64,000 nt of DNA, from contig PHDD01000013.1 of the NCBI GenBank assembly GCA_002840905.1, positions 73,075 through 137,074 of the forward strand. Direction: 5' to 3'. Positions 27,992-63,171 of the stretch are shown here, in pieces. Every line of letters begins with the position of its first letter. The stretch's first letter is position 1. The notes below the pieces were generated by a model, which saw nothing but the letters and a program-made list of their open reading frames with translations, searched no databases and was not told the DNA's origin. Source of the DNA: Bacteroidetes bacterium HGW-Bacteroidetes-4. Lineage in GTDB: Bacteria; Bacteroidota; Bacteroidia; Bacteroidales; SZUA-534. Position numbers and translations under genes: made by a program.

Positions 27992-28492
27992 ATGGCAACC
28001 TCTTTAAAAAACCTGAGCGATTACAACATGCTGTTGGTAGCCGATGCCGGCAACATGAAATTTGGCATTGTAGTAGCCGAATGGAACAGCGAAATTACCG
28101 AAGCACTTTACCAGGGAGCCTACACTACCCTGCTAAAGCACGGAGCTAAAGAAGAAAACATTATCCGTAAATACGTGCCCGGAACCTTTGAGTTGACGCT
28201 GGGCGCCCAACTCATTGCGCAAAATACCGATGTAGATGCCGTTATTGTTTTAGGCTGTGTAATCCAGGGCGAAACCCGTCACTTCGATTTTATTTGCCAG
28301 GGAATCACCCAGGGCATTACCACCCTGAATATGGATTACAGCATGCCCTTTATTTTTGGCGTGCTAACCACCGACAACCAACAACAGGCTTTAGACCGCG
28401 CCGGAGGCAAGCATGGCAACAAAGGCAACGAGGCCGCTGTTACCGCTATTAAAATGGTGAGCCTGCAACGCAGCCTGGAATCAGTGGAATAA
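27992..28492 (+). CDS. ribH: 6,7-dimethyl-8-ribityllumazine synthase
   Basis: Penultimate enzyme of riboflavin synthesis, joining the ribityl pyrimidine with dihydroxybutanone phosphate. Substrate loop FGIVVAEWNSEIT (W31), VPGTFELTLGAQ, and H97 in GETRHFDF, the proton-transfer histidine. The 166-residue length suits the 60-meric or pentameric enzyme. No FMN riboswitch is recognisable upstream. Alone, with the other rib genes outside the window. Confidence 0.95.
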   Translation: MATSLKNLSDYNMLLVADAGNMKFGIVVAEWNSEITEALYQGAYTTLLKHGAKEENIIRKYVPGTFELTLGAQLIAQNTDVDAVIVLGCVIQGETRHFDFICQGITQGITTLNMDYSMPFIFGVLTTDNQQQALDRAGGKHGNKGNEAAVTAIKMVSLQRSLESVE

Positions 28493-28665
28493 AAGAACGT
28501 ATTTATTACCGAATAAGCACAGGGAGCAGCCCATAACCAAGGGTTCTGCTCCTTTTGTTTTATTCGGCTTTTCACTATTACCTGGCTTCATTTACCTCAG
28601 CCCCCAAGCTTTAAAAACACCCGCCCTAATTCCCTAAAATAAACCCCTGCAACCAGCAATAAAAC
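28493..28665. other. non-coding DNA after ribH
   Basis: No gene. It leads into the 22-bp repeat array; one partly matching unit may begin at 28644. Confidence 0.4.
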
Positions 28666-28885
28666 CGTATAGACGAAAATAAATAATCGTATTGACGCTT
28701 TTAAAAAATCGTATCGATGCAAATTTATATTCGTATAGATAAAAATTTAAAAACCTCTTGATGTTTTTATTTTTTCGTATAGACCAAAGTTTAAAAACCT
28801 CTTGATGTTTTTATTTTTTCATATAGACGATTTTCTAAAAACCTCTTGAGGTTTTTTAAAAAGGGAATTGATATTTTTGAAAAAC
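28666..28885. repeat. phased 22-bp repeat array, ten units without indels
   Basis: Ten consecutive units of exactly 22 bp, each a 10-bp core and a 12-bp spacer that is almost only A and T. Cores begin at 28666, 28688, 28710, 28732, 28754, 28776, 28798, 28820, 28842 and 28864. They read CGTATAGACG, CGTATTGACG, CGTATCGATG, CGTATAGATA, CCTCTTGATG, CGTATAGACC, CCTCTTGATG, CATATAGACG, CCTCTTGAGG and GGAATTGATA. The last unit is degenerate. Units 5 and 7 are identical over the full 22 bp. The period is close to two helical turns, so all cores face the same side of the helix. The length and layout recall iterons or a multi-site protein-binding array; no function is known. Confidence 0.85.
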
Positions 28886-29156: not shown

Positions 29157-29188
29157 AAAAAACCCGGACGAACCGGGCTTTTGTTTTT
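29157..29188. terminator. intrinsic terminator downstream of yidC
   Basis: CCCGG (29163-29167) pairs with CCGGG (29173-29177), extended by A/T pairs. On the minus strand a run of T follows. Confidence 0.75.
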
Positions 29189-29199
29189 TTATTTTTTAA

Positions 29200-31077
29200 T
29201 TAGCGTTTGGGAGGCTGATAACCTTTTTGTTTGGCCATATCCTCGAGGCGCTGTTGCCATTTCGATTTTTGCGGGGCCTTTTTATTGGCCGATGCCGCTT
29301 TCAGTTTGGCCAGAATCTCGTCGTCGTTAATGGTACGGCGAATGGCCCAGGTTTGAATGATGGTAATTAACAGCGACAAGAAGTAATAATAACTTAAAGC
29401 CGATGCGTAACTGTTAAACCAGAACAGCATCATTACAGGCATCATATACATCATCATCTTCATTCCCGGAATCTTTTGATTGCTCATGCTCATCTGGTCG
29501 TTAAACTTCATGTAAACGATGTTCACCACCGTCATTAGCAAACACCAAAGACTAATGTGGTCGCCAAAACCAAAAGGAACAGTAAAGGGCAGGTTGATTA
29601 CCGCGTCGTAAGTAGAAAGGTCGGTAGCCCAAAGGAAGGCTTCCTGGCGCAACTCAATAGAGTTGGGGAAGAATCGGAACATAGCAATCAGGAGCGGCAT
29701 CTGGAAAAGCAAAGGCAAACATCCGCCCATGGGGCTCACGCCCACCTTTTTGTAAAGGGCCATGGTAGCCTGTTGCTTTTTCATGGCATCTTCCTGCTTC
29801 GGAAACTTCTCACTAATCTTATCCACCTCGGGCTTAAGGGCCTTCATTTTGGCGGTCGACATGTACGATTTATAGGTAAAGGGGAAAATCAGCAGCTTGA
29901 TTATAATGGTCATCAGCAAGATAATTAATCCGTAATTACCCATGTATTTTCCCAAAAAGTTAAACAAAGGAATCACCAAACCCACGTTCACCCAGCGAAT
30001 AATACTCATACCCAATTCAATAACCCGCTCCAAATCGATGTCCATTTTGCGGAGCGTTTTATAATGGTTGGGGCCAAAGTAAAACGACATGGGATAATCG
30101 AGGCTTTGTTTGGCATCGTAGGGAAGCGAAATAGACGCTGAAAACTGTTTCAGGAAATTGGGGTTGATGACTTCCTTTTCGGTTTTCACCAGGGCATTGC
30201 TGAAATAATTATCGGCAATTAAAGCTACGTTAAAGAATTGCTGCTTAAACGAAATCCATTTAACCGGAGTGGTCAGGTCTTTTTGGTCGGAGTCGGAGCG
30301 CATGTTCAGGCTTTCCACATCGGCCTCGTGAAACTTGTAAAACACGGTCGAGTTGGTTTCTTCCCAGCTGCGTCCCTTTTCCTGTCCGGTAATGTAACTT
30401 TTCCAGTTCAGGGTAAGGTAACCGGTATTGGTCGAAATATCGGCCTGTAAGCCTTCAATTTTTATATCGAAATCAACCACGTAACTTTCAGGATTGATGG
30501 TATAGCGGTATTCCACATATTTACCAGGGGTTACCATAAGTCGGAAGGCAAAGGTTTCGGCCTTGTCGGTAACCACTTTGCCGTTGGTTCCCTCAACCAG
30601 CTCAAAAAACAGGTTGTTGGTAGCAATGCTCCGGTTTTTGGCAAAAAAGTTAAGGCCAAATTCGGTAGAATCGCCCGAGAAAAGAATCAGCGGGGTGCCA
30701 TCGTATTTTTTATAGTTTTTAAGCTCGGCCGAATAAATACGCCCGCCTTTATTGCTAAACTGAAGTTTGATTAGGTCGTTCTCAGCGGTGTAGAATTCCC
30801 GTTCGCCTTTGGCTGCCGGGGCAAAATCACCATAAAACTGGTTTAGCTGGTCGTTGGTGTTTGCTGTATTACCAGTTTCATTTGCTGAGATTACAGGACT
30901 TTGTTTTTGTTGGTTTTCGATGACAAGTTCCTGTTTGTTTCTCTCGCGCTCTATCTGAGCAATGGAATCTTGTCGGCGTTGTTCGGCAATTTGCTGTTCA
31001 GTAGGCCGGGTAAAATAGCTCCAGGTAAATAACACCCCTACAATCAGCACCAGGCCTATCCATGAATTTTTATCCAT
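29200..31077 (-). CDS. yidC: YidC membrane protein insertase
   Basis: Inserts and folds inner-membrane proteins, alone or with SecYEG. Residues 5-22 are the first membrane helix, about 60-370 the periplasmic beta-sandwich domain of the Gram-negative form, and about 380-600 the conserved 60KD_IMP core with five helices (GNYGLIILLMTIIIKLLIFPFTYKSYMSTAKMKALKPE, MGGCLPLLFQMPLLIAMF). The C-terminal tail is basic (KKAPQKSKWQQRL...PPKR), fitting ribosome contact. The 26-bp gap after pyrG suggests a shared transcript. Confidence 0.96.
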   Translation of the reverse strand: MDKNSWIGLVLIVGVLFTWSYFTRPTEQQIAEQRRQDSIAQIERERNKQELVIENQQKQSPVISANETGNTANTNDQLNQFYGDFAPAAKGEREFYTAENDLIKLQFSNKGGRIYSAELKNYKKYDGTPLILFSGDSTEFGLNFFAKNRSIATNNLFFELVEGTNGKVVTDKAETFAFRLMVTPGKYVEYRYTINPESYVVDFDIKIEGLQADISTNTGYLTLNWKSYITGQEKGRSWEETNSTVFYKFHEADVESLNMRSDSDQKDLTTPVKWISFKQQFFNVALIADNYFSNALVKTEKEVINPNFLKQFSASISLPYDAKQSLDYPMSFYFGPNHYKTLRKMDIDLERVIELGMSIIRWVNVGLVIPLFNFLGKYMGNYGLIILLMTIIIKLLIFPFTYKSYMSTAKMKALKPEVDKISEKFPKQEDAMKKQQATMALYKKVGVSPMGGCLPLLFQMPLLIAMFRFFPNSIELRQEAFLWATDLSTYDAVINLPFTVPFGFGDHISLWCLLMTVVNIVYMKFNDQMSMSNQKIPGMKMMMYMMPVMMLFWFNSYASALSYYYFLSLLITIIQTWAIRRTINDDEILAKLKAASANKKAPQKSKWQQRLEDMAKQKGYQPPKR

Positions 31078-61149: not shown

Positions 61150-63171
61150 TCAATTTTTTCGGATCACCTTATATAAACCAAATAAAAGTAAGGGAAGTAT
61201 CAAAAACCACCACCACCATTTGCTTGCCGACGAATCGCTTAAATTGTTTGTAAGGTTTTGATTTTGTGAACCCAATAGGCTTTTTTTGTTTTTTGATTTT
61301 TGATTTAGCGTTTGGTCGTTGTTTTTTGAGTTGCCTTTGGTTGGTGATTGCGCCAAATTTTCATTTTCGTTAAAAACAAGTCGCTTATTCAACTCACTGG
61401 CAATTAACAATTCGGCAGTATGTAAACTTTTATTGCTTGCATCAGATTGATTGGCAGCTATAGTTGAATCATTAACTTGAGATGCATTAATACCATCATT
61501 ATCAGTATCAATACCCTGCAATTTGCTTTGGTCTGAATTTGGGATTGAAGCATAAGTATCTGGTGCTTTTGTAAGTGGTGAAACTATATTGGTAAAGGCT
61601 ACTACTTGTTGCGACTGATCGTAAGCATATTCAGGAACATTAATCACATATTCAAAAGCTTCCTGACTTTTGGATTCAAATATTACTTTAAATTGTTGTC
61701 CCCGGGGTAGTATAAACAGAAATTTTCCCGATTCAGCATCGGGCGTGTATATACCGAATAAATTATCGTCAAGATCGGTTAATGTAATGACTGCGTTTTC
61801 CAGTATTCTACCATCCAAACCACGTGCAAAACCCGCTATTACGGTTTGATTACGGATATGCGATTCCGAAAGGTCGATTCTAAAAATGTCGTAATTTCCA
61901 ATGCTGTTATTGGCATACGATGCATAATAAGCCCTGCGTCCATCAACCGATGGCACATAATACACATTATCGTCGGGCGTATTTATCGGGTAACCCAAAT
62001 TTTGCGGAGTAGACCATTGTTCTTTGTCATCGATATAACTCACAAAAACATCAAATCCACCCATGGTGTTATGACCGCGTGAAGCAAAAAACAGCGAAGT
62101 TCCATCGGGATGAATGTATGGGCCTTCTTCGTCGAAAGGTGTATTAATTGTAGGACCCAGGTTTTGAGCCTTGCTCCAGTTTCCGTTGGGTAACTTACGA
62201 ACCCGGTAAATATCCAATCCGCCGTAACCTCCTTTTCTATCGGAAGTAAAAAACAGTTGATTCTGATCGAAGGACATGGAAGCATGTGTTTCACGAAACT
62301 TGCTGTTAACTACATCGGGTAGGCGCTCTGGGGCATCCCAAACAGCACCTTTTCGGTTACTAACATACAGGTTCCCATCGCCGGCATCGTCGCGGTAAAT
62401 AAAAAGTTTTGTCCCATCGAACGAAAGTCCCACTGAAGCTTCATGCCCGGCCGTGTTTACGTTTCCGCTAATTCGCTGTGAAGGTGTATATTCCGAACCA
62501 TTAAAACTACTCAGGTAAATGTCTTCAAAGTATTGTCCATCGTCCATCATCAGGTTTCCGGTGTTTCCTTCACGTTTCGATGTAAAAATCAACAAGCTTT
62601 CGTCGCCGCTAATTACAGGGCTGTGTTCTGCATAAGCCGAATTGACCTGACTTCCCAAGTTGGAAACTTTCATCTCGACCGGTGATTTCATTAATACCCT
62701 GGCCACCTGACACGATGCCAATTCATGATTAATGCGTGCCATAAACGCCTCATCTTCGTCGGTAAGCATTCCTTTAAGTTCGAAAAATGTACGCTCAGCA
62801 TCATCAATCCGATAAGTTACATGGTACGCTTTACCCATATAAAATAATACCTCGAGTGGGGCATTTTGCTCCTGATAATTCAGTGGATTGTACGATTCGG
62901 AAATATGTTTCGACGCAAACTCAAGGTAAGGAATGGAATTTGCTTTATTTACTGCAGTGTTTAAATAACAAAAACCCACTTTAAAATTTAAGTTGGCATT
63001 ATTAGGCGCTTTGCTCAACAGGCTTTGATACAATTCCAACGCTTTATGAAAATTTCCATCTTCAACAAAATCTTCAGCCTGAAAATAAACTTCTTCATTG
63101 GTTTGCGACATAAGAACCAACGGAAACAACAGTGAAGCAATTAAGAGTGCCCAATAGTATTTTTTTAACAT
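61150..63171 (-). CDS. TPR / beta-propeller protein with C-terminal membrane anchor
   Basis: Tandem paralogue of the gene downstream. Signal peptide (LKKYYWALLIASLLFPLVLMSQ), TPR about 25-150, PD40 beta-propeller about 180-445 (FTSDRKGGYGGLDIYRV, FFASRGHNTMGGFDVFVSY) and a CRD-like fold about 450-525. Then a Ser/Asn/Lys/Gln-rich linker (about 545-645) ends in a Trp-rich membrane helix (KWWWWFLILPLLLFGLYKVIRKN). It has no OmpA or SPOR domain. It was probably made by duplication with a change of anchor from peptidoglycan binding to a membrane helix. 58 bp separate it from the next gene. Confidence 0.82.
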   Translation of the reverse strand: MLKKYYWALLIASLLFPLVLMSQTNEEVYFQAEDFVEDGNFHKALELYQSLLSKAPNNANLNFKVGFCYLNTAVNKANSIPYLEFASKHISESYNPLNYQEQNAPLEVLFYMGKAYHVTYRIDDAERTFFELKGMLTDEDEAFMARINHELASCQVARVLMKSPVEMKVSNLGSQVNSAYAEHSPVISGDESLLIFTSKREGNTGNLMMDDGQYFEDIYLSSFNGSEYTPSQRISGNVNTAGHEASVGLSFDGTKLFIYRDDAGDGNLYVSNRKGAVWDAPERLPDVVNSKFRETHASMSFDQNQLFFTSDRKGGYGGLDIYRVRKLPNGNWSKAQNLGPTINTPFDEEGPYIHPDGTSLFFASRGHNTMGGFDVFVSYIDDKEQWSTPQNLGYPINTPDDNVYYVPSVDGRRAYYASYANNSIGNYDIFRIDLSESHIRNQTVIAGFARGLDGRILENAVITLTDLDDNLFGIYTPDAESGKFLFILPRGQQFKVIFESKSQEAFEYVINVPEYAYDQSQQVVAFTNIVSPLTKAPDTYASIPNSDQSKLQGIDTDNDGINASQVNDSTIAANQSDASNKSLHTAELLIASELNKRLVFNENENLAQSPTKGNSKNNDQTLNQKSKNKKSLLGSQNQNLTNNLSDSSASKWWWWFLILPLLLFGLYKVIRKN

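What the first reader, a model, noticed from the sequence alone, without database searches (positions are those of the whole stretch)
28666..28885. Phased 22-bp repeat array in non-coding DNA between ribH and yidC
Ten units of exactly 22 bp, each with a 10-bp core (C-G/C-T-A/C-T-x-G-A-Y-G) and a 12-bp A/T spacer, with no insertions or deletions over 220 bp. Two core types (CGTATAGACG-like and CCTCTTGATG-like) alternate in the second half, and units 5 and 7 are identical. The spacing of about two helical turns puts all cores on one face of the DNA. Constant spacing despite core drift suggests selection for position. Replication iterons have similar unit length, but no initiator gene is near. 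Alternatives are a nucleoid- or segregation-protein array or bent DNA.
Basis: seen in the sequence. Interest (0 to 1): 0.75.

Follow-up and report, generated by a model that had tools for sequence, protein, structure and literature searches.

The report
Dispersed 22-bp phased palindrome arrays
A stretch of DNA between two ordinary bacterial genes is one of a scattered family of short arrays, found almost only in Bacteroidales, in which small mirror-symmetric sites recur exactly every 22 base pairs; the family appears undescribed and probably serves as a landing strip for a DNA-binding or DNA-topology protein, though that is not proven.

Summary
The array is real: 28666-28885, exact 22-bp pitch, self-match 0.54 at offset 22 and 0.70 at 44, against at most 0.47 at any offset in 1000 shuffles. 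It is not a single-copy control site. The same genome holds five more arrays with the same pitch and core. A scan of about 85,000 species genomes found the two-unit core at 52 places, 51 in Bacteroidota; some genomes hold dozens of unit pairs. Core (CRWMYRKWYG) and spacer (YRWWRSSYWWYR) are both near-palindromic, so symmetry axes fall every 11 bp. In unselected contigs 34 of 36 neighbouring cores lie exactly 22 bp apart. Longer, unrelated palindromes flanking arrays fall in the same register (14 of 15). Arrays favour 3' ends and convergent gene pairs. No compensatory covariation, which argues for duplex DNA sites rather than hairpins. At this locus the array is absent from relatives with the same ribH-yidC pair, and both genes appear to have their own terminators. 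Iteron, bent A-tract DNA, RAYT-mobilised REP and terminator readings are not supported. Best reading: a REP/BIME-like dispersed repeat with a strict 22-bp lattice, probably bound by a DNA-topology or nucleoid protein. A selfish minisatellite is the main rival.

The parts
28666..28885 (.). Array of ten 22-bp units (10-bp core + 12-bp A/T-rich spacer); the last unit is degenerate
   Evidence: exact pitch, self-match far above shuffles
28666..28753 (.). Units 1-4, core type CGTATAGACG (CGTATAGACG, CGTATTGACG, CGTATCGATG, CGTATAGATA)
28754..28841 (.). Units 5-8: 44-bp dimer CCTCTTGATG / CGTATAGACC-type, units 5 and 7 identical
   Evidence: period 44, score 184; a similar dimer run exists at contig C23:91403-91484 of the same genome
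28837..28856 (.). In-register longer near-palindrome AAAAACCTCTTGAGGTTTTT centred on core 9 (cap-like; core 28842-28851)
   Evidence: sequence; similar in-register caps of other sequence elsewhere
28864..28885 (.). Unit 10, degenerate core GGAATTGATA
27992..28492 (+).
28520..28561 (+). Probable intrinsic terminator of ribH (GGAGCAG ... CTGCTCC TTTTGTTTT), upstream of the array
   Evidence: read from the sequence; loop too long for the scan
29163..29177 (.). Terminator hairpin CCCGGACGAACCGGG between A- and T-runs, at the 3' end of yidC and outside the array; similar ones lie there in relatives
29200..31077 (-). Flanking convergent gene yidC
   Evidence: orthologues in relatives

Best explanation
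The array is one member of a dispersed, mostly intergenic repeat family of Bacteroidales whose defining feature is a lattice: near-palindromic 10-bp cores alternating with near-palindromic 12-bp spacers at a rigid 22-bp pitch, so two-fold axes fall every 11 bp. Shown: dispersion, pitch, dyad-symmetric consensus, in-register flanking palindromes, enrichment at gene 3' ends and convergent gene pairs, patchy lineage distribution. Inferred: the lattice is kept because a two-fold symmetric protein (or a topology enzyme, as gyrase is reported to do at E. coli BIME-2 arrays; from general knowledge) binds successive dyads on one face of the double helix, so insertions and deletions are removed while bases drift. 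Placed downstream of transcription units, especially between convergent ones, the likely effect is to anchor or relax transcription-driven supercoils or to limit read-through, which is the way REP/BIME arrays are thought to work. Arrays grow and spread by duplication of units and of whole arrays.
For: Six arrays in the own genome, with reversed-pattern controls low. Bacteroidota-restricted distribution of the exact two-unit pattern, 51 of 52 hits, none in viral contigs. Dozens of unit pairs in some genomes. Core distances 22/44/66/88/110 dominate in unselected contigs; 34 of 36 neighbouring cores 11-40 bp apart are exactly 22, while neighbours in the array set differ on average at 3.8 of 12 spacer and 1.4 of 10 core positions. 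Strong palindromes near arrays: 21 of 26 centred at phase 0 and 4 at phase 11 of the 22-bp register, including 14 of 15 outside the arrays and of several unrelated sequences. The register continues through diverged DNA beyond the cap in G410 (23 of 53 core-like hits at one phase of 22; the six copies are homologous). No within-unit covariation, so half-sites are read as duplex. Context: 29 convergent, 23 tandem, 7 divergent arrays, against 37/150/68 background intergenic regions. No recurrent neighbouring gene.
Against: No binding protein identified and no binding data. Exact pitch is also what tandem duplication gives by default. The family is missing from most Bacteroidales by the patterns used (3 of 393), including same-genus genomes, so it is not essential. 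The convergent bias is also expected of neutral insertions that avoid promoters. The array at this locus is not conserved.
Confidence: 0.45

Rival explanations
1. Selfish or neutral minisatellite: a palindromic 22-bp unit that expands by slippage and spreads by recombination or transposition in trans, tolerated downstream of genes; pitch is only a memory of the duplication.
For: Patchy distribution, lineage-specific presence at the window locus, uneven copy number between related genomes, array duplicated with flanks at C25:30793 and C25:63437, arrays attached to a dispersed ~370-bp non-coding element in G410. A tandem array of a palindromic unit has dyads every half unit automatically.
Against: Register is kept across units that differ at about a quarter of their positions, with no 20, 21, 23 or 24-bp neighbours in unselected contigs; unrelated palindromes outside the arrays lie in register; the core is shared between distant genomes while spacers are not.
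Confidence: 0.33
2. RNA-level element: transcribed 3' hairpins acting as terminators or mRNA 3' stabilisers.
For: 3'-end and convergent location; the window array folds better than shuffles (z -2.6 and -3.2); caps are perfect palindromes with a few compensated changes.
Against: No covariation of paired positions within cores, within spacers or across cores (complementarity not above shuffled); ribH and yidC appear to have their own terminators outside the array; most caps lack a U-tract; no Rfam match at gathering scores in array loci and none credible in the window.
Confidence: 0.12
3. REP/RAYT system: units are REPs mobilised by a Y1 tyrosine transposase.
For: Dispersed palindromic intergenic repeats, convergent or downstream location as in PMC3733652; a Y1_Tnp gene exists in this genome.
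Against: No Y1_Tnp match in array-bearing G105, G286, G408 and G414; no GTAG tag; no 5-13 bp covarying stem; no recurrent neighbouring gene.
Confidence: 0.05
4. Replication or segregation iterons, or intrinsically bent DNA.
For: Unit length of about two helical turns.
Against: Many dispersed copies per genome; no GC-skew switch in the window and no 10-11-bp A-tract phasing; GC-rich arrays elsewhere.
Confidence: 0.05

Closest known systems
REP / BIME (repetitive extragenic palindromes, bacterial interspersed mosaic elements)
   Same: Dispersed, intergenic, palindromic, mosaic, downstream of genes and enriched between convergent genes, copy number very uneven between species
   Different: Strict 22-bp lattice with dyads every 11 bp; no conserved stem with compensatory changes; no GTAG tag; RAYT not required
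CGTC-tagged REPs (PMC3733652; reported in five phyla including Bacteroidetes)
   Same: CGTC occurs at one end of the core in one orientation; no dedicated transposase; Bacteroidetes among the hosts
   Different: Those have an unpaired CGTC tag, 8-9 bp stems, 4-5 nt loops and a CCA-type tail, mostly as head-head dimers with rare clusters; here clusters dominate and there is no such stem or tail
BrickBuilt MITE of Porphyromonas gingivalis (PMC4596501)
   Same: Intergenic minisatellite in a Bacteroidales genome, many loci
   Different: 23-bp unit AGAYCATARTATCCTCTCRTRTG, leader and tail with terminal inverted repeats, reported only in P. gingivalis by BLASTn
Replication iterons (17-22 bp)
   Same: Unit length, head-to-tail arrays
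   Different: Dispersed multi-locus, palindromic, both orientations, no initiator seen nearby

Membership tests
REP (GTAG type) | Terminal GTAG tag | tested here: not met
   Consensus core CRWMYRKWYG and spacer YRWWRSSYWWYR, no GTAG
REP (any) | 5-13 bp stem with complementary pairing kept | tested here: not met
   No excess complementarity over shuffles in core, spacer or across core
REP (any) | Intergenic, between convergent and unidirectional genes | tested here: met
   29 convergent / 23 tandem / 7 divergent against 37/150/68 background
REP-RAYT | Associated Y1 tyrosine transposase | tested here: not met
   PF01797 not found in array-bearing G105, G286, G408, G414
CGTC REP | CGTC tag, 8-9 bp stem, 4-5 nt loop, CCA tail, HH dimers with rare clusters | tested here: not met
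   CGTC only as part of CGTCTATACG in one orientation; pitch 22 and arrays of 2-10 units; feature list from PMC3733652
BIME | Binding by gyrase or IHF | not testable with these tools
   needs ChIP or footprinting
BrickBuilt MITE | 23-bp unit AGAYCATARTATCCTCTCRTRTG | tested here: not met
   Unit length and sequence differ
MITE | Terminal inverted repeats and target duplication | tested here: inconclusive
   Arrays start and stop without common ends; the 370-bp G410 element has an internal inverted repeat but its borders were not resolved
Replication iteron | Adjacent initiator gene or origin | tested here: not met
   No such gene recognised among the ORFs listed, no skew switch in the window, many dispersed copies; no family search for initiators was run
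Intrinsic terminator | GC stem plus U-tract at the gene end | tested here: not met
   Scan finds no terminator in the array; only unit 9 resembles one by eye
Bent A-tract DNA | A-tracts phased at about 10.5 bp | tested here: not met
   AAA/TTT power at 10, 10.5 and 11 bp not above shuffles

The most novel reading that the evidence does not exclude
A Bacteroidales chromosomal lattice: a dedicated or adapted protein forms a filament or wrap on duplex DNA with two-fold axes every 11 bp, and tolerates almost any palindromic sequence as long as the register is kept, so that selection acts on geometry rather than on letters. It marks the ends of transcription units as a bacterial counterpart of a chromatin boundary.
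Probability: 0.25. Interest if true: 0.85.

Novelty: new variant of a known kind. Interest (0 to 1): 0.6.

Why it matters
If register rather than sequence is what is conserved, these arrays would be a rare natural case in which the geometry of the double helix is the selected trait, and would point to an unknown DNA-organising or topology factor in a major group of gut and rumen bacteria. Even as selfish repeats they are a widespread family for which the paper searches made here found no description, and which can confuse assembly and annotation.

Tried and rejected
RAYT/REP link (PF01797): not required. Recurrent neighbouring gene as autoregulator or cargo: none. Hairpin covariation: none. 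Rfam: nothing credible. Viral contigs: none. A-tract curvature and GC-skew position: negative. Literature by core sequence (unrelated hits) and by description: only BrickBuilt and REP papers relevant. Core-agnostic period scan in same-genus G002, 400 kb: no array found. Orthologous array positions between species: one of four compared 3' ends has arrays in both species, with different cores; too few to conclude. First attempt at G410 contigs used the wrong contig numbers.

Full report
Observation. The array is present as described. Ten 22-bp units run from 28666 to 28885 without an indel; the tenth is degenerate. Self-match at offset 22 is 0.535 and at 44 is 0.70, against 0.316 +/- 0.032 at offset 22 in shuffles and at most 0.468 at any offset. 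It lies in non-coding DNA between the convergent genes ribH and yidC. Reading the sequence, ribH has its own probable terminator at about 28520-28561, and a hairpin at 29163-29177 sits at the end of yidC, so the array is outside both.

Own genome. A two-unit pattern with mismatches and a BLAST search find five more arrays (C11:96668, C23:91403, C25:30793, C25:63437, C26:62524); the reversed-pattern control gives 5 and 1 against 17 and 8 at up to 3 mismatches and none at up to 2 with the palindromic pattern. All have the same pitch. Cores occur in both orientations (CGTATAGACG / CGTCTATACG). Second core types (CCTCTTGATG, GTCCCGATC-like) lie in the same register. The two C25 arrays share flanking sequence and look like copies of each other.

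Synteny. The convergent ribH-yidC pair is conserved in five relatives, with intergenic lengths of 90-1203 bp, but none has the array. At this locus it is therefore lineage-specific.

Distribution. An exact two-unit pattern against one genome per species (84,980 species) gives 52 stretches, 51 in Bacteroidota and nearly all Bacteroidales, mostly rumen and termite-gut genomes plus Marinifilum; viral contigs give none. By rough calculation about 15 hits would be expected by chance over the whole collection, spread over all phyla, so the concentration is not chance. In an even sample of the order only 3 of 393 genomes carry the strict pattern. Hit genomes carry many unit pairs (196 in G410 against 25 in the reversed control, 84 against 2 in G413, 64 against 4 in G415, 42 against 1 in G408). 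With a looser three-unit pattern, 9 of 41 genomes (G410 included) in the genus of G410 are positive, with lineage-specific cores such as CATCTATATG, CGACTATACG and CATCTACATG. The strict pattern therefore underestimates the family.

Anatomy. In 75 non-redundant arrays (351 cores, 276 spacers; 2-10 units each) the core consensus is CRWMYRKWYG and the spacer consensus YRWWRSSYWWYR, both two-fold symmetric. A shuffle test stratified by genome or by array finds no compensatory covariation within cores, within spacers or across cores, so this is not a family of selected hairpins; it looks like symmetric double-stranded sites with independent half-sites. In 469 kb of G410 and 464 kb of G000, core distances fall on 22, 44, 66, 88 and 110, and 34 of 36 neighbouring cores 11-40 bp apart are exactly 22 apart, although neighbouring units across the array set differ on average at 3.8 of 12 spacer and 1.4 of 10 core positions. 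Note that the 75-array set was built by register and cannot itself prove absence of indels; the contig counts can.

In-register caps. Strong palindromes (at least 10 of 11 pairs) within 90 bp of arrays number 26; 21 are centred on core axes, 4 on spacer axes and 1 elsewhere. Fifteen lie outside the arrays and 14 of these are in phase. They belong to several unrelated sequences (GTTATTCGGTCGCGACCGAATAAC, AGGTGGATCACCATGGTGGTCCACCT, GTGTCCCATTAATGGGACAC), although many are copies of the same cap. In G410 some arrays are the end of a ~370-bp non-coding dispersed element, and the 22-bp register continues through it beyond the cap: 23 of 53 core-like hits fall at one phase of 22, in six homologous copies.

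Context. Arrays lie between convergent genes in 29 cases, tandem in 23, divergent in 7 (11 at contig edges, 5 inside predicted ORFs, some of them probably chance hits). Background intergenic regions of at least 120 bp in two of the genomes are 37, 150 and 68. Gene calls came from a simple codon-usage caller written here. No gene family recurs beside arrays. Y1 transposases are absent from several array-bearing genomes.

Mechanism. The combination of dispersal, 3'-end and convergent location, and palindromic mosaic units is that of REP/BIME sequences (PMC3733652), which are thought to act on supercoiling, termination or mRNA ends. The distinctive feature is a rigid 22-bp lattice with axes every 11 bp, kept while letters change. 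I infer that a two-fold symmetric protein or a topology enzyme binds successive axes on one face of duplex DNA; the binder is unknown. The chief rival is a neutral or selfish minisatellite whose pitch is the memory of duplication. RNA hairpins, iterons, bent DNA and RAYT-mobilised REPs are each contradicted by a test above.

Verdict.

Noticed in passing
G410:C5:25646-26035, C5:69141-69504, C2:36210-36604, C2:63907-64386, C13:61599-62017: A ~370-bp non-coding dispersed element (AAACTACACTTTAGCAC... with an internal inverted repeat CTACACTTTAGCAC / GTGCTAAAGTGTAG) without ORF, ending in the GGTCGCGACC cap and a 22-bp array; possibly an uncharacterised MITE or ncRNA.
   Followed up: partly
L080, L088, L129, G410:C5:88012; L068, L095, L109; L224: Other in-register caps of unrelated sequence: GAGGTGGATCACNATGGTGGTCCACCTC, GTGTCCCATTAATGGGACAC, and a tandem of CCACTGGTGG palindromes flanked by AACTC/GAGTT.
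   Followed up: partly
G000:C25:30793-30868 and C25:63437-63512: Two arrays about 33 kb apart that share units and flanking sequence (AAAATAAGGCCTGCTGCAA), apparently copies of one another.
   Followed up: no
L082:1515 and G410:C5:55816-55913: Arrays in two species at the 3' end of orthologous genes (71% protein identity) but with different cores (CGTATAGACG versus CGAATAGTCG): either position-conserved turnover or independent gain.
   Followed up: partly
L084:5411-5442 (Paraburkholderia nodosa): The only hit outside Bacteroidota; two units with similar spacers, may be chance.
   Followed up: no
window 61283-61349: Short tandem repeat (25 bp x 2.2, TTGATTTTTGAGTTGCCTTTGGTCG).
   Followed up: no
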